A stretch of 39,599 nucleotides of DNA. It comes from Streptomyces sp. SID4985 (lineage in GTDB: Bacteria; Actinomycetota; Actinomycetes; Streptomycetales; Streptomycetaceae). Numbering within the stretch: position 1 is the first letter of the stretch; every line of letters starts with the position of its first letter. Where the stretch lies: positions 1 through 39,599 of the forward strand of contig NZ_WWIR01000391.1 in the NCBI RefSeq assembly GCF_009863025.1. The letters run 5' to 3'. Of this stretch, positions 2,937-7,579 are shown piece after piece. The notes below the pieces were generated by a model. The model was not told the origin of the DNA. It searched no databases and saw only the letters and a list, made by a program, of their open reading frames with translations. Both the position numbers and the translations under genes were made by a program.

Positions 2937-3419
2937 ATGCGTGTGATCGCCTGGCTCGTCGAGGGCACCTGGCCCGCCTGTGTGGACGCCGTACGGGAGC
3001 ACACCCCGGCCGGTGCCGAGGTGGTGCTGCTGCACGTGAGCGGGCCCGAGGTGCCCGGGGTGGCGCACGGGGCGTTCGCGGGGCTGCTCGGCCGGGGACG
3101 CAGGAACGATCCGGGCGATCTGATGGAGACGCTGAACGACGGCTCGGCGGCGGAGCTGCTCGCGGCGGCCGCCGAACGGCTCGGCCGCCCCTGCGTCCGC
3201 GAGGAGCGGTCCGGCCGGGTCGAGCGCGAGGTCGTCGCGGCGGCCGAGGGCGCCGATCTGCTGGTCCTCGCCCGCGACGGCGACCACACCCGGCTCGGCC
3301 CGCACAGCCTGGGCCCCGCCTCCCGCTTCACCGTGGACCACGCGCCCTGCCCGGTCCTGCTGGTCTGGCCGGACCGGGCGCCTTCCCTGCGGACCCTGCC
3401 GCCACCGCCGCCCCATTGA
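2937..3419 (+). CDS. Universal stress protein (UspA-like)
   Basis: A 160-residue single-domain protein with the Usp fold. It has a beta strand and short loop at MRVIAWLVEGTWPACVDAV, a central helix (SAAELLAAAAERLGRP), the strand-turn ADLLVLARDGDHTRLGPHSLGPASRF matching the family's nucleotide-loop region, and the conserved C-terminal strand HAPCPVLLVWP. The classic G-x2-G-x9-G-S/T loop is altered (GDHTRLGPHSLGPASRFTV), so ATP binding is uncertain. The ATG at 2937 follows an AGAGGGG ribosome site, about 50 nt after the permease stop, suggesting an operon. It ends convergent to the lectin/sigma fusion gene, 7 nt apart. Confidence 0.8.
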   Translation: MRVIAWLVEGTWPACVDAVREHTPAGAEVVLLHVSGPEVPGVAHGAFAGLLGRGRRNDPGDLMETLNDGSAAELLAAAAERLGRPCVREERSGRVEREVVAAAEGADLLVLARDGDHTRLGPHSLGPASRFTVDHAPCPVLLVWPDRAPSLRTLPPPPPH

Positions 3420-3426
3420 CGGCCGG

Positions 3427-5340
3427 TCAGCGGCGGTGACCTCCGTAGGAACCCCCGTAGGAGCCGCCGTACGAGCCCCCGTAGGAACCGTAGGACCCGC
3501 CGTGGTCCCAGTCGCCGTACTGGCCGTCCCGGAGACAGGCGTCCTGGTGGTCGGCGCAGCGGTAGGAGACGGGGAAGCCCTCCCGGGTGGGCCCCGGCTG
3601 CTCGGTGGGGGTGGTGCTGGGGGCGGGCCGTGCGCTCTGGGTGGGAGCCGGTGCGGCGGTCCGGGTGGGAGCGGTGGGCGCGCCGGTGGTGCCCTTGGCG
3701 GGCGGGGTGGTGCCGTCCCAGTTGACGGTCTGCATCTGCGGGTCGGTACGGCTCGTGTCCATCACCCAGCGCTGCGCCCCGGTGTCCTCGCGGTTCTTGA
3801 CGACCAGCGCGCCCGAGCCGTCGGTGGCGGCCGGGGTGAGGGCGAGGTCCTGGTCCCAGCGCGGGACGAGGACGCCCTGGAGGGTGAAGTCGTAGCGGAG
3901 GTTCTTCGCGGTGCGTCCGGTGGCCGAGCAGGGGGCGAGGCGGACCGAGTAGCCGAGGTGGGAGTCGAGGCAGAGGTCGGGGGCGGCGTCGCTGCGCAGC
4001 AGCCCGTTGGTCTCGTACGTCCAGCGCTGCGACGGTGCCGCGGAGCAGGCGGCCAGTGCGGTCTCGGCGCCCTCGACCGCGTCGCCGACGACACCGACGC
4101 AGTCGCCGGAGGCCACGTTGTGCAGCCTGCCGTGCAGGGCGCCCTCGCGGGTGCTCGCCCCGGCCCAGGACGGGCCCGGCGAGGGCGGCTGGGTGTCCGG
4201 TGCCTCGGAGGGGGTGGCGCCGTGGGCGCGGGCGGACTCGTCGCCGGAGCCGAACGCCGACCACAGCACCAGCGGGAGGACGACCAGGCCGCCGACGGTG
4301 GCGACGGCCATGCCGAGGTTGCGGCGGCGGGCGCGGCGCACGGCACGGTGCGCGGAGCGGACGGTCGCCCCGTGGGGCGTGATGTCCCGCTGCGCGGGCG
4401 GAAGTCCCGGGGCGGCGGGCGACGGGCCGAAGTCCTCGCCGCCCGTGAGCGCGGGAATGGCGGGCGCCTCCTCGGCGCGGTTGATACGGGCCTCGCGGTA
4501 CTCGGCGGCGGCCCAGCCGAGGACCGACTCCGCGAGCGCGAGCCCGAGCCCCTGCTTGAAGCGGGCGAGCTGCTCGGCGGTCTCCATGCAGTGGCGGCAG
4601 CCCTCGAGATGGGTCCGCAGATCGGGGTCCATGTCCATGGCGCCGCGCCGGAAGGTCACGTCCAGCATCCGCAGATAGCGCCCGCACTCGGGGTCGGCGG
4701 CCAGCTCGCGGTGGGTCTGGAGGCACTCCTCGCGCAACCGCTCGCGGGCACGGCGCAGTTCGATGAGGGTGTTCTCCTCGTCCAGGCCGAGGAGTTCGGC
4801 GGGGACGGAGAGGGGCTCGCCCTCGACCTCGGCGTGCCAGAGCACGGCGCGGTAGGACTGGGGCAGCCGCTGGAAGGCGCGGGACAGCAGCCGCCTGCCG
4901 GAGGACGGGAGCAGCCGGGCGGCGGCGCGCTCCGTGCTGCCGGGGACCGGGCGCAGCGCGGGGTGCAGCAGGTCCTGGCGGCCGTCGCCGTCCCACTCGG
5001 CGGCGACGCGGCGCACGGTGACCAGCAGATGGGGGCGCCAGGCGGCGGACGGTCCGGTCTGGCGCAGGGTCTCGCCGAAGAGCCGGGTGAAGGCGGCGGT
5101 GGTGAGCATCCCGGCCGCGCGCGGCCCGGCGGTGCACAGCCGGGCGTAGGCGTAGCCCGCGGCCCAGTGCCGGTCGAGGAGTTCGCCGACGGGGTGCAGC
5201 GCGGGCGCCGCTCCCGTCCAGTTCTTCAGCTCGGCACTGAGTTCCCGGTCCGATACCGGAGTCCGCCTGCCGTGCTCATAATCGACGGAATCCGGGGACT
5301 GGGGGAAATCAGGGAAATTCTCCGGTCCTTCGCCTTTCAC
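3427..5340 (-). CDS. Sigma-factor-like / zinc anti-sigma-like / membrane / ricin-lectin fusion protein
   Basis: 637 residues from GTG 5340, chosen because GGAGG lies 9 nt upstream; longer upstream reading has no ribosome site. Order of parts: sigma-70 region-2-like helices (about 55-115), region-4-like helix-turn-helix (RLPQSYRAVLWHAEVEGEP, about 145-208), a zinc anti-sigma-like motif (Cys219, then H244-x3-C248-x2-C251), an Arg-rich stop segment, one membrane helix (about 342-364), an external ricin-type beta-trefoil with QRW motifs near 438 and 523, a Pro/Thr linker (about 540-590) with a Cys pair at 595/602, and a C-terminal run of GGSY repeats (about 614-634). The cytoplasmic half would bind core polymerase or DNA; the external lectin would bind glycan. 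Ricin-domain proteins with sigma-like heads occur in Streptomyces but I know of no assigned function. It could equally be a degenerate, non-transcribing sensor. Confidence 0.75.
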   Translation of the reverse strand: MKGEGPENFPDFPQSPDSVDYEHGRRTPVSDRELSAELKNWTGAAPALHPVGELLDRHWAAGYAYARLCTAGPRAAGMLTTAAFTRLFGETLRQTGPSAAWRPHLLVTVRRVAAEWDGDGRQDLLHPALRPVPGSTERAAARLLPSSGRRLLSRAFQRLPQSYRAVLWHAEVEGEPLSVPAELLGLDEENTLIELRRARERLREECLQTHRELAADPECGRYLRMLDVTFRRGAMDMDPDLRTHLEGCRHCMETAEQLARFKQGLGLALAESVLGWAAAEYREARINRAEEAPAIPALTGGEDFGPSPAAPGLPPAQRDITPHGATVRSAHRAVRRARRRNLGMAVATVGGLVVLPLVLWSAFGSGDESARAHGATPSEAPDTQPPSPGPSWAGASTREGALHGRLHNVASGDCVGVVGDAVEGAETALAACSAAPSQRWTYETNGLLRSDAAPDLCLDSHLGYSVRLAPCSATGRTAKNLRYDFTLQGVLVPRWDQDLALTPAATDGSGALVVKNREDTGAQRWVMDTSRTDPQMQTVNWDGTTPPAKGTTGAPTAPTRTAAPAPTQSARPAPSTTPTEQPGPTREGFPVSYRCADHQDACLRDGQYGDWDHGGSYGSYGGSYGGSYGGSYGGHRR

Positions 5341-5657
5341 TACCGTATTCCTCCAGACCCGACACGGAATCGGCCCATACCGACGGCAGGACCCCGAACG
5401 CGACAGCCCCAACGCCCGCCTGGGGAAGCTCATTTGAGACAGGGGGGACGCACCGGAGCGGACCGGCGCTCGCGGCGGAAAAACAATTGTCCGGGCGCCG
5501 GCAGCGCACACTTTCGCACAGGCCGGCGGCACGGAACAAGAGATCTCCCGTTCGCGGGCATGGAAAACGGAACAGGCGAGAAGGAAGATGATCACTGACC
5601 GGGATTCAATCCCCGGGAATCCTGTTGATCACTCAAGGAAAAAATAGGCGGCGGAAA
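5341..5657. other. Intergenic region with repeat element, promoter of the sigma/lectin gene expected here
   Basis: 317 nt without a convincing gene, less GC-rich than its surroundings. TGATCAC occurs twice (5589-5595 and 5626-5632) flanking an inverted repeat GGATTC / GAATCC (5602-5607 and 5615-5622 region). The minus-strand gene starting at 5340 must be transcribed from here. I could not pick a convincing -35/-10 pair. Open reading on both strands lacks ribosome sites and typical codon use. Confidence 0.45.
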
Positions 5658-6626
5658 TCAGTGCCCGCTCACCGCGCGCGGGGTGTACGGCCGCTCCAGC
5701 TCCTCGGCCTCCTCGTCGGTCAGCTCCAGCCGCACGGCGGCCACCGCGTCCTCCAGATGTCCGGGCCGCGACACCCCGACGATCGGCGCCGCCACCGTGT
5801 CCTGACGCAGCAGCCAGGCCAGCGCCACCTGGGCGCGCGGCACACCCCGCGCCTCGGCGACCCGGGTCACCGCCTCCACGATCTCCCGGTCGCTCTCCAG
5901 ATACAGCCGGCTGCCGAAGTCGTCGCCCGCGCTGCGTCCGGTGACGGTGCCCCAGTCACGGGTGAGCCGCCCGCGCGCCAGCGGGCTCCACGGCAGCACG
6001 CCGACCCCCTGGTCCGCGCAGAACGGCAGCATCTCCCGCTCCTCCTCGCGGTAGAGGAGGTTGTAGTGGTTCTGCATGGACACGAACCGGGTCCAGCCGT
6101 TCAGCTCGGCCGTGTACTGCGCCTTGGCGAACTCCCACGCGTACATCGAACTCGCCCCGAGATAGCGGACCTTGCCCGCCTTCACCAGGTCGTGCAGGGC
6201 CTCCATCGTCTCCTCGACGGGGGTCTCGTGGTCGTAGCGGTGGATCTGGTAGAGGTCGACGTAGTCGGTGCCGAGCCTGCGCAGGCTGTGGTCGATCTCG
6301 GACATGATCGCCTTGCGGGACAGGCCCCCGCCGTTGGGCCCGGGGCGCATCCGGCCGTGCACCTTCGTGGCGAGCACGATCTCGTCGCGGTGCCCGTAGT
6401 CCCGCAGGGCCTGGCCGACGATCTCCTCGCTGGTGCCGTCGGAGTAGACGTTGGCGGTGTCGAAGAAGTTGACCCCCGCCTCCAGCGCCTGCCGGATCAG
6501 CGGCCGGGCCGCCTCCTCGTCGAGCGTCCACTCGTGGACGCCCCGGTCGGGCTCGCCGTAGGTCATGCAGCCCAGACAGATCCGCGAGACGTCCAGGCCC
6601 GTGGAACCCAGCTTCACATACCGCAT
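5658..6626 (-). CDS. Aldo/keto reductase
   Basis: 322-residue NADPH-dependent oxidoreductase of the AKR superfamily, (beta/alpha)8 barrel, cytosolic. Visible catalytic residues: Asp and Tyr in NFFDTANVYSDG, Lys in ATKVHGR, and His in YQIHRYDHETP. The cofactor end (PWSPLARGRLTRDW, then ALAWLLRQD and PIVGVSRPGHLEDAV) is intact. The sequence opens MRYVKLGSTGLDVSRICLG, typical of the AKR group that includes YajO-like and general stress protein 69-like enzymes. ATG 6626 is preceded by an AGGAG 9 nt upstream. Divergent from the GH114-type gene. Substrate unknown. Confidence 0.93.
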   Translation of the reverse strand: MRYVKLGSTGLDVSRICLGCMTYGEPDRGVHEWTLDEEAARPLIRQALEAGVNFFDTANVYSDGTSEEIVGQALRDYGHRDEIVLATKVHGRMRPGPNGGGLSRKAIMSEIDHSLRRLGTDYVDLYQIHRYDHETPVEETMEALHDLVKAGKVRYLGASSMYAWEFAKAQYTAELNGWTRFVSMQNHYNLLYREEEREMLPFCADQGVGVLPWSPLARGRLTRDWGTVTGRSAGDDFGSRLYLESDREIVEAVTRVAEARGVPRAQVALAWLLRQDTVAAPIVGVSRPGHLEDAVAAVRLELTDEEAEELERPYTPRAVSGH

Positions 6627-6778: not shown

Positions 6779-7579
6779 GTGGCCCGCCAGGCTGTCCCGC
6801 GCGCCGCCGCCGCGCTGCTCGCCCTCGCCGTCGCCCTGACCGGCTGCGGATCGGGGCAGAAAGCGGACGGGGTGCGACTCCCGCCGCGCCACGCCGGGTT
6901 CGACTACCAGATCGGCGGCGCCTACCCGCCGCCCGCCGGAGTCCGGATCGTCACCCGCGACCGCTCCGACTCCCCCGCCCCCGGCCACTACAACGTCTGC
7001 TATGTCAACGCCTTCCAGGCCCAGCCCGACGAACGCGCCGACTGGCCCGCCGACCTGCTGCTGCGCGACGCGGACGGCCGCACGGTGATCGACGAGGACT
7101 GGGACGAACCCCTCCTCGACCTGCGCACCCCCGCCAAGCGGGAGCGGGTCGCGCGCCGGGTGAACGGCTGGATCGACGGCTGCGCCCGGAAAGGCTTCGA
7201 CGCCGTCGAGCCCGACAACTACGACAGCTACACCCGCTCCCACCGTCTGCTCACCGCCGCCGACGCGGTCGCGTACATGCGCCTGCTGACCCGGCACGCG
7301 CACACCCGCCGGCTGGCCGTCGGCCAGAAGAACACCGCCGAGCTGACCGGGCGCCGGGAAGCGGCCGGGCTGGACTTCGCGGTGACGGAGGAGTGCGGGC
7401 AGTACGACGAGTGCGGGGTGTACGCGAAGGCGTACGACGACCGGGTGCTGGACGTCGAGTACACCGACGCGGGCCTGCGCAAGGCGCTGGCGCGCTGGGG
7501 CGGCAGACTGGGCATCGTCCGCCGGGACCTGCAGGTCTCCACGCCCGGCGATCCGGGGTACGTCCGCCGGACCCGCTGA
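6779..7579 (+). CDS. GH114-type (endo-alpha-1,4-polygalactosaminidase-like) lipoprotein
   Basis: 266 residues. GTG 6779 is chosen because a GAGGGAG ribosome site precedes it and it gives a lipoprotein signal peptide (ARQAVPRAAAALLALAVALTGC, Cys near residue 23). The mature part follows the GH114 TIM-barrel pattern: FDYQIGGAY near the start, YNVCYVNAFQ, DWDEPLLDLR, GCARKGFDAVEPDNYDSY (family acidic residues after strand 4), GQKNTAEL, and AVTEECGQYDECGVY. GH114 enzymes cleave galactosamine-rich polymers; many homologues are uncharacterised. As a lipoprotein it would act on the outer face of the membrane or cell wall. Its stop is one base from the convergent flavoprotein gene. Confidence 0.85.
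   Translation: MARQAVPRAAAALLALAVALTGCGSGQKADGVRLPPRHAGFDYQIGGAYPPPAGVRIVTRDRSDSPAPGHYNVCYVNAFQAQPDERADWPADLLLRDADGRTVIDEDWDEPLLDLRTPAKRERVARRVNGWIDGCARKGFDAVEPDNYDSYTRSHRLLTAADAVAYMRLLTRHAHTRRLAVGQKNTAELTGRREAAGLDFAVTEECGQYDECGVYAKAYDDRVLDVEYTDAGLRKALARWGGRLGIVRRDLQVSTPGDPGYVRRTR

What the first reader, a model, noticed from the sequence alone, without database searches (positions are those of the whole stretch)
3427..5340. Single polypeptide combining sigma-like, zinc anti-sigma-like, membrane and external lectin modules
Seen: sigma region-2/4-like helices, then C219/H244-x3-C248-x2-C251, a membrane helix at 342-364, a ricin trefoil and a GGSY tail. Known: ECF sigma factors and ZAS anti-sigma proteins are normally separate, and the external sensor is on the anti-sigma. 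Inference: the fusion could tether its own sigma part to the membrane and release it by cleavage when the lectin binds wall glycan. It may instead be non-transcribing.
Basis: partly seen in the sequence, partly recalled or inferred. Interest (0 to 1): 0.65.

Follow-up and report, generated by a model that had tools for sequence, protein, structure and literature searches.

The report
Lectin receptor built from sigma factor
A soil bacterium makes a membrane protein whose inner half descends from a gene-switching sigma factor and whose outer half looks like a sugar-binding lectin; the layout is already known, but this widespread branch has lost the residues that sigma factors use to grip RNA polymerase, so it may signal in another way.

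Summary
In detail: window 5340-3427 (minus) encodes 637 residues with a sigma-2/sigma-4-like half, a C/HxxxCxxC zinc site, one membrane helix, a ricin-type lectin domain and a Gly/Tyr tail. The layout is not new: it is that of the actinobacterial group ECF52 (SCO4117), for which release by cleavage is already proposed in print. Profile comparison ties the inner half to ECF52 over 255 columns. What differs is region 2. Pfam's sigma-2 model is matched by 0 of 35 window orthologs (clade A) and 0 of 20 paralogs (clade B), against 22 of 22 ECF52 proteins. The acidic D...E pair of the polymerase-binding motif is gone in all 45 A and 21 B rows; regions basic in ECF52 are near neutral and the HTH is acidic. 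The 47 rows without the pair form one group, yet the half is conserved. Best reading: a glycan receptor whose sigma/anti-sigma module no longer makes an ordinary holoenzyme and acts by protein contact (inferred). Most A and B genes share a palindromic operator close to DasR sites; the window's copy is degenerate. A link to contractile injection systems was tested and rejected. New variant of a known kind.

The parts
3427..5340 (-). gene for the 637-residue sigma-like / zinc / membrane / ricin-lectin protein (clade A)
   Evidence: GTG start with GGAGGAA at 5348-5354, region conserved in orthologs
4966..5193 (-). altered sigma region 2-like domain, residues about 50-125
   Evidence: hhalign to ECF52 99.8%; Sigma70_r2 matched by 0 of 35 orthologs; folding low confidence
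5089..5118 (-). AAGMLTTAAF (residues 75-84), in place of TADDLTAEVF of ECF52; acidic pair lost
   Evidence: lost in 45 of 45 A and 21 of 21 B rows, kept in 23 of 23 ECF52 rows
4705..4914 (-). sigma region 4-like helix-turn-helix domain, residues about 143-212, net acidic
4546..4704 (-). zinc anti-sigma-like segment, residues about 213-265, C219/H244/C248/H250/C251
   Evidence: invariant in 35 orthologs; aligned to the ECF52 zinc finger
4249..4317 (-). single transmembrane helix, residues 342-364, N-terminus inside
   Evidence: hydropathy and flanking charges
3766..4134 (-). ricin-type beta-trefoil lectin domain, residues 403-525
   Evidence: Pfam E 2.3e-14; profile matches in the PDB to ricin-type lectin and xylanase domains
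3430..3501 (-). Gly/Tyr-rich GGSY tail, residues 614-637
   Evidence: by a crude count (15 Gly and 4 Tyr or more in the last 60 residues) 25 of 40 complete clade-A C-termini have one, 0 of 19 clade B
5370..5383 (-). operator-like palindrome, degenerate copy TCGGTATGGGCCGA of WTGGTRYGKACYWW

Best explanation
It is a single-pass membrane receptor descended from the ECF52 kind of membrane-tethered sigma factor. Outside, a ricin-type domain binds a glycan, plausibly of chitin, fungal or bacterial wall. Inside, the sigma-2/sigma-4/zinc anti-sigma module is kept as one conserved unit but has lost the acidic clamp-binding motif and the basic stretches of region 2, so it no longer forms an ordinary RNA polymerase holoenzyme. 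Glycan binding most likely frees, hides or sheds this module so that it binds another protein: a sigma mimic that takes up an anti-sigma domain, or an anti-sigma that takes up a sigma domain, the paralogous ECF52 protein being the first candidate partner. Shown: architecture, descent, loss of the motif, charge change, low dN/dS, an operator shared by most clade A and B genes. Inferred: loss of polymerase binding, glycan gating, the partner and the direction of the effect.
For: ECF52 homology across sigma2-sigma4-zinc finger: 99.8% over 255 columns. Sigma70_r2 matched at E up to 1 by 0 of 35 (A), 0 of 20 (B) and 22 of 22 (ECF52). Acidic D...E pair lost in 45 of 45 A and 21 of 21 B, kept in 23 of 23 ECF52; a tree built without these columns puts all 47 'lost' rows on one side of a branch, support 94/96. 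That motif is described as the beta-prime clamp contact (PMC8999054 section 12; PMC8103513 passage), and sigma32 contacts include D77 and E81, same spacing (PMC10216364 passage). Mean net charge A/B/ECF52: region 2.1 -0.6/0.4/3.1; 2.3-2.4 0.5/0.3/2.8; HTH -3.0/-1.8/0.2. HTH dN/dS 0.04 and 0. Operator scoring 12 or more of 14 in 39 of 44 A (4 shuffled) and 14 of 21 B (0 shuffled) upstream regions, 1 of 25 ECF52-type. TTGGTATGGACCAA, one or two bases from typical clade-A sites, stands before CBM4_9/fn3 chitinase-like genes in 4 of 8 genomes and is one base from a listed S. coelicolor chiB DasR site (PMC4398421 passage).
Against: No experiment bears on it. Sigma-4 is still weakly recognised in 15 of 35 A proteins, and Foldseek ranks ECF sigma factors first for the predicted module, though none at E below 0.001. 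The region-2 model has low confidence (pLDDT about 37-57) and on its own finds no sigma fold. HMMER's filters drop most matches above E 0.1, so 0 of 35 means no match of note, not no resemblance. The group of 47 rows falls just short of full support (92% of 200 bootstrap trees). No partner is identified. The charge argument compares with ECF52 only, whose own HTH is near neutral. The zinc segment gives dN/dS 0.07 and 0.32 on very few changes. The window's operator copy is degenerate, the clade-B copy of its genome (L002) lacks one, and the pattern finds 0 sites in that genome. Over 8 genomes the pattern finds 25 sites against 15 for its reversed control, so genome-wide the enrichment is modest.
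Confidence: 0.5

Rival explanations
1. A conditional sigma factor: tethered and silent, then released by cleavage and given its missing negative charge by phosphorylation at T80/T81 (as ECF43 EcfP is at its STTA motif) or by a helper protein, and then it does transcribe.
For: ECF43 lacks the DAED motif and is activated by a kinase (PMC8999054 section 12). T80 and T81 are invariant in 35 clade-A proteins. Sigma-4 is still recognisable in 15 of 35. Proteolytic release is proposed for ECF52 (PMC5826349). A PAS/GAF/SpoIIE protein with a HATPase_c_2 domain (a domain kind that includes anti-sigma serine kinases, recalled) has relatives in 21 of 25 loci examined, 20 of which were picked for having A and B close together.
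Against: The Thr pair lies after, not at, the DAED positions (AAGM here); T80 is shared with ECF52. L110-L112, of clade-B kind, have Ala at both places. Basic stretches of region 2 are lost as well and the HTH is acidic. No Ser/Thr protein kinase family appeared among the neighbours scanned by Pfam.
Confidence: 0.27
2. A surface lectin or adhesin whose cytoplasmic sigma-like half is only a vestigial anchor.
For: Lectin domain and Gly/Tyr tail; loss of the sigma-2 profile match.
Against: The HTH is better conserved than the lectin domain: dN/dS 0.04 and 0 against 0.24 and 0.23, and the altered motif is nearly invariant across 45 rows.
Confidence: 0.14
3. An effector of the Streptomyces contractile injection system, like Sco4256-4258 (single membrane helix, two with ricin C-terminus).
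For: Similar description in PMC10066040 (section 11).
Against: No association: marker PF14065 in 54 of 90 genomes with clade A and 135 of 205 without, Fisher p 0.36; none in the window's genome. Of 30 loci at or beside such markers only one (L139) gave a family hit, to the lectin domain alone; the genes there that fit the published description have a different N-terminus. Sco4256-4258 themselves were not at hand.
Confidence: 0.02

Closest known systems
ECF52 sigma factors (SCO4117 of Streptomyces coelicolor)
   Same: Order of parts: sigma domain, zinc finger, membrane helix, proline-rich stretch, carbohydrate-binding domain; homologous over the inner half. The window's genome has its own ECF52-type gene (L004) beside a gene that looks TetR-type by eye, as SCO4117 lies beside atrA.
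   Different: Acidic core-binding motif and sigma-2 profile lost, charges shifted; ricin-type instead of NPCBM outer domain; operator found before only 1 of 25 ECF52-type genes.
ECF43 sigma factors (EcfP, EcfK)
   Same: Both lack the acidic DAED motif.
   Different: Described as kinase-activated; the section read mentions no membrane or lectin part. Here the Thr pair lies beside, not at, the motif, and no Ser/Thr protein kinase was recognised among the neighbours scanned.
PhyR-type sigma mimics
   Same: Sigma-like domain used for binding an anti-sigma instead of polymerase (PMC8999054 passage); a working analogy only.
   Different: No receiver domain found, membrane-bound, fused to its own zinc anti-sigma-like segment.
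L093-type ECF52 relative with ricin domain
   Same: Ricin-type outer domain, sigma and zinc parts in the same order.
   Different: Region 2 intact (Pfam E 9.9e-12); lies outside the group that lost the motif.

Membership tests
ECF sigma factors | Sigma region 2 with acidic core-binding motif | tested here: not met
   Sigma70_r2 in 0 of 35; motif AAGMLTTAAF
ECF sigma factors | Sigma region 4 helix-turn-helix | tested here: inconclusive
   Pfam E 0.0013 under the cut-off; 15 of 35 orthologs match at E up to 1; structure matches on model residues 104-228, best Z 7.3, rmsd 3.5, 70 residues
ECF sigma factors | Binds core RNA polymerase and starts transcription | not testable with these tools
   none
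ECF52 | Homology over sigma and zinc-finger half | tested here: met
   hhalign 99.8%, 255 columns; the ECF52 set is defined by similarity to L004, not by comparison with SCO4117 itself
ECF52 | Zinc finger, membrane helix, proline-rich stretch and carbohydrate-binding domain in that order | tested here: met
   the outer domain is ricin-type and not NPCBM
ECF52 | Intact sigma region 2 | tested here: not met
ZAS zinc anti-sigma domain | HxxxCxxC with an upstream His or Cys (motif as recalled) | tested here: met
   C219...H244-x3-C248-x2-C251 invariant in 35; but Pfam zf-HC2 in only 1 of 35
Ricin-type lectin (CBM13) | Beta-trefoil profile with QxW repeats and paired Cys | tested here: met
   Pfam E 2.3e-14; Q438, W440, W525, C414, C432, C457, D459, C471 invariant in 35; QxW seen in two of three repeats; sugar binding not tested
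ECF43 phospho-activated sigma factors | Phosphorylatable Ser/Thr at the DAED positions and a neighbouring Ser/Thr protein kinase gene | tested here: not met
   AAGM at those positions; no such kinase among the neighbours scanned, though not every neighbour was scanned
Contractile injection system effectors (Sco4256-4258 kind) | Shared N-terminus and genomic link to the injection locus | tested here: not met

The most novel reading that the evidence does not exclude
A widespread Streptomyces family of membrane-bound pseudo-sigma receptors: ECF52-type one-component sigma factors that gave up polymerase binding and became glycan-gated sigma mimics or anti-sigmas, expressed under a DasR-like (chitin / N-acetylglucosamine) operator and acting on the still-working ECF52 protein in the same cell.
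Probability: 0.3. Interest if true: 0.78.

Novelty: new variant of a known kind. Interest (0 to 1): 0.5.

Why it matters
The tethered sigma/anti-sigma/lectin layout is known, but a conserved branch that keeps the sigma domains while losing its polymerase grip would be a membrane-bound counterpart of sigma mimicry. Intact, partial and lost forms still exist in the genus (L093, L094 and L104, clades A and B), so the step from sigma factor to something else can be tested directly. The operator shared by most A and B genes points to polysaccharide (chitin) sensing as the setting.

Tried and rejected
Contractile injection effector idea: raised by PMC10066040, rejected by co-occurrence and by reading genes beside injection loci. 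Structure of region 2: two folding jobs, low confidence; the second (region 2 alone) found no sigma fold, which neither supports nor refutes. Profile search of clade A against the PDB listed only ricin-type lectin and glycosidase domains at E up to 0.1, no sigma factor. Paper searches on a ricin-bearing sigma fusion, ECF52 and the DAED motif listed nothing on this clade; the primary classification papers behind ECF52 were not read. A search for sigma70 contact residues found nothing useful; another led to the sigma32 paper. A first tree was built on 24 columns by a script error and replaced.

Rows left out: one clade-A locus with a broken frame (L022) was dropped when the 45 A rows were made. 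A1 held 35 of 45 A rows (five truncated and five others left out), A2 20 of 21 B, A3 22 of 23 ECF52. The tree held 24 A, 15 B, 15 ECF52, 2 family-f3 and 15 further rows. Gene neighbourhoods used 25 loci, 20 of them picked because A and B lie near each other, so linkage counts from them are biased.

Full report
WHAT IS THERE. The frame 5340-3427 on the minus strand codes for 637 residues. The GTG start has GGAGGAA seven bases ahead, and this region is conserved in orthologs. Pfam finds a ricin-type lectin at 403-525 (E 2.3e-14) and a sub-threshold sigma region 4 at 150-202 (E 0.0013); the NCBIfam sigma models that match do so only within residues 129-211. No region 2 match appears. The only stretch with mean hydropathy above 1.6 peaks at 342-364, with seven Lys/Arg just before it and one after, which by the positive-inside rule puts the sigma-like half inside. 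C219, H244, C248, H250 and C251 are invariant in 35 orthologs. GGSY repeats start at 614.

WHAT IT DESCENDS FROM. Papers describe group ECF52: sigma domain, zinc finger, membrane helix, proline-rich stretch, carbohydrate-binding module, only in Actinobacteria, with SCO4117 as the studied member; release of the sigma part by proteolysis after carbohydrate sensing is proposed there (PMC5826349, abstract and passages; PMC8999054, passages; PMC10766802, passage). The window's genome has its own ECF52-type gene (L004) beside a gene that looks TetR-type by eye, as SCO4117 lies beside atrA. That L004 is the SCO4117 ortholog rests on this neighbour and on similarity, not on a comparison with SCO4117 itself. 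A profile of 35 window orthologs (A1) aligns with a profile of 22 such ECF52 proteins (A3) over 255 columns at 99.8% probability, window residues 25-285.

WHAT HAS CHANGED. Three groups were compared: A (window orthologs), B (paralogs 41-47% identical to the window in the inner half) and ECF52. Sigma70_r2 was matched at E up to 1 by 0 of 35 A, 0 of 20 B and 22 of 22 ECF52 proteins; Sigma70_r4_2 by 15 of 35, 2 of 20 and 20 of 22; zf-HC2 by 1 of 35, 1 of 20 and 21 of 22 (HMMER's filters drop most matches above 0.1). ECF52 reads TADDLTAEVF where A reads (A/S/P/G/Y)AG(M/I)LTTAAF. The D of DL and the E three residues after L are lost in 45 of 45 A and 21 of 21 B rows and kept in 23 of 23 ECF52 rows and in the two family-f3 rows L084 and L085; five B rows keep an acidic residue one position before the lost D. 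Reviews state that this acidic motif contacts the beta-prime clamp (PMC8999054 section 12; PMC8103513 passage), and in sigma32 the clamp contacts include D77 and E81, which have the same spacing (PMC10216364 passage). Mean net charge for A, B and ECF52: region 2.1 -0.6, 0.4, 3.1; region 2.2 0.0, 0.4, -2.1; region 2.3-2.4 0.5, 0.3, 2.8; region-4 HTH -3.0, -1.8, 0.2 (24, 22 and 16 rows). Yet the half is conserved: dN/dS against L006 and L007 is 0.29 and 0.25 overall, 0.04 and 0 in the HTH, 0.26 and 0.05 in region 2, 0.07 and 0.32 in the zinc segment, 0.24 and 0.23 in the lectin domain; the counts per domain are small.

HISTORY. A tree of 71 rows and 204 columns, with the motif columns left out, puts all 47 rows without the acidic pair on one side of a branch (94/96; 92% of 200 bootstrap trees). 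Just outside it lie L104 (partial motif, LamG-type outer domain), L094 (partial) and L093 (intact motif, region 2 at E 9.9e-12, ricin-type outer domain). So a ricin-type outer domain exists with an intact sigma part, and the loss of the motif probably happened once. L104 and L094 are long branches and their places are unsure.

HOW COMMON. A match of any family member at E up to 1e-10 is found in 285 of 295 genomes of the genus, the window's own included. Clade A, taken as best E below 1e-75, is in 90 of 295 (my count, used). In a set of 11 genomes, most of them picked for many matches, one gave up to 12 matches, some being two pieces of one gene.

OPERATOR. Upstream regions of A share a palindrome near TTGGTATGGAC(C/T)WW, 73-149 bases before the conserved LSAE codons in the 29 regions aligned, with the reading frame starting in between. 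Scored as WTGGTRYGKACYWW on both strands, 12 or more of 14 positions match in 39 of 44 A regions (4 of 44 shuffled; window not counted), 14 of 21 B (0 shuffled) and 1 of 25 ECF52-type regions; at 13 or more, 36 of 44 and 13 of 21 against 0 shuffled. L092 and L109-L113 match 13-14; L093, L097, L102 and the clade-B copy of the window's genome (L002) match 9-10. A rows are related by descent, so the count alone proves little; that the separately placed B genes have it too is the stronger point. The pattern finds 25 sites in 8 genomes against 15 for its reversed control. By my reading of the loci, 11 lie before family members, 4 before genes of one kind (two of the four scanned: CBM4_9 and fn3 domains in both, a GH18 match below the cut-off in one, both cut by the locus end), one before a transporter sugar-binding-type protein, others before a GH64, a pectate-lyase-like or other gene, and some inside genes. 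S. coelicolor DasR sites listed for chiB and chiC read attggtctggaccaaa and ataggtctggaccaat (PMC4398421, passages): over 14 bases one and two differences from TTGGTATGGACCAA. I infer control by DasR or a close relative. The window's own copy, TCGGTATGGGCCGA at 5370-5383, is degenerate, and the pattern finds no site in the window's genome, so this inference is weaker for the window itself.

NEIGHBOURS. In the window, an arsenite/citrate-type transporter (1591-2883), a DUF4232 protein (803-1537) and a Usp protein (2943-3419) run towards the gene; an aldo/keto reductase gene (5658-6626, minus) and a GH114 gene (6779-7579, plus) lie upstream. Among 25 loci, 20 of them chosen because A and B are near each other, relatives of a PAS/GAF/SpoIIE/HATPase_c_2 protein occur in 21, of a GH9 protein in 15 and of a GH2 protein in 13 (domains read on the L041 copies). 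The first is of interest because such domains serve in anti-sigma partner switching (recalled); no relative of it was clustered from the window, whose contig ends 3.4 kb from the gene.

STRUCTURE. With only five sequences allowed, AlphaFold2 gives region 4 plus the zinc segment at block pLDDT 72-89 and region 2 at about 37-55. Foldseek lists ECF sigma factors first (best E 0.018, none under 0.001). The second look gives best Z 7.3 (3.5 A over 70 residues) to the entry of SigL region 4 with RslA, covering region 4 only. Region 2 alone folds poorly (mean 57) and finds no sigma fold.

MECHANISM. Outer lectin, membrane helix and inner sigma/anti-sigma module are shown by sequence. That the module cannot bind core polymerase in the usual way is inferred from the lost motif and charges. 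That it works by binding another sigma or anti-sigma, gated by glycan, is inference, about even odds. A conditional sigma factor (charge restored by phosphorylation of T80/T81 or by a helper) stays possible at about one in four.

NOVELTY. Not a new architecture; a new variant of ECF52. I found no paper on the motif-less branch in the listings, and did not read the classification papers that might list it.

Noticed in passing
L041:3598-4212 and equivalents (clusters 3 and 4, 19 of 25 loci): Two small genes (about 76 and 125 residues) directly upstream of clade B, same strand; they look like an antitoxin and a Doc/Fic-like protein by eye, but Pfam gives no match.
   Followed up: partly
upstream of clades A and B (window about 5500-5560): A second conserved block, CTTGTT followed some 15-19 bases later by TGTGCAAAG, is shared in similar form by the upstream regions of A and B; it may be their promoter, type unknown.
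   Followed up: no
G193:C1:24040-24867 and 10349994-10350821 (L097, L108): Identical copies of a family member near both ends of a chromosome, in a shorter frame with no lectin match.
   Followed up: no
L139:2606-7014: Three tandem genes beside a contractile injection locus with a shared N-terminus (Ig-like by eye), a membrane helix by eye and varied C-termini, fitting the published description of Sco4256-4258.
   Followed up: partly
L104, and plasmid protein WP_053763456.1 (L172): Family members with a LamG-type outer domain instead of ricin or NPCBM; the plasmid one, 32% identical in the inner half, is annotated only as a LamG protein.
   Followed up: no
L002 and L003 (own genome, contigs C168 and C716): The clade-B inner half and a matching membrane-lectin half each end at a contig break in the window's genome; they may be two parts of one gene. 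Not joined.
   Followed up: no
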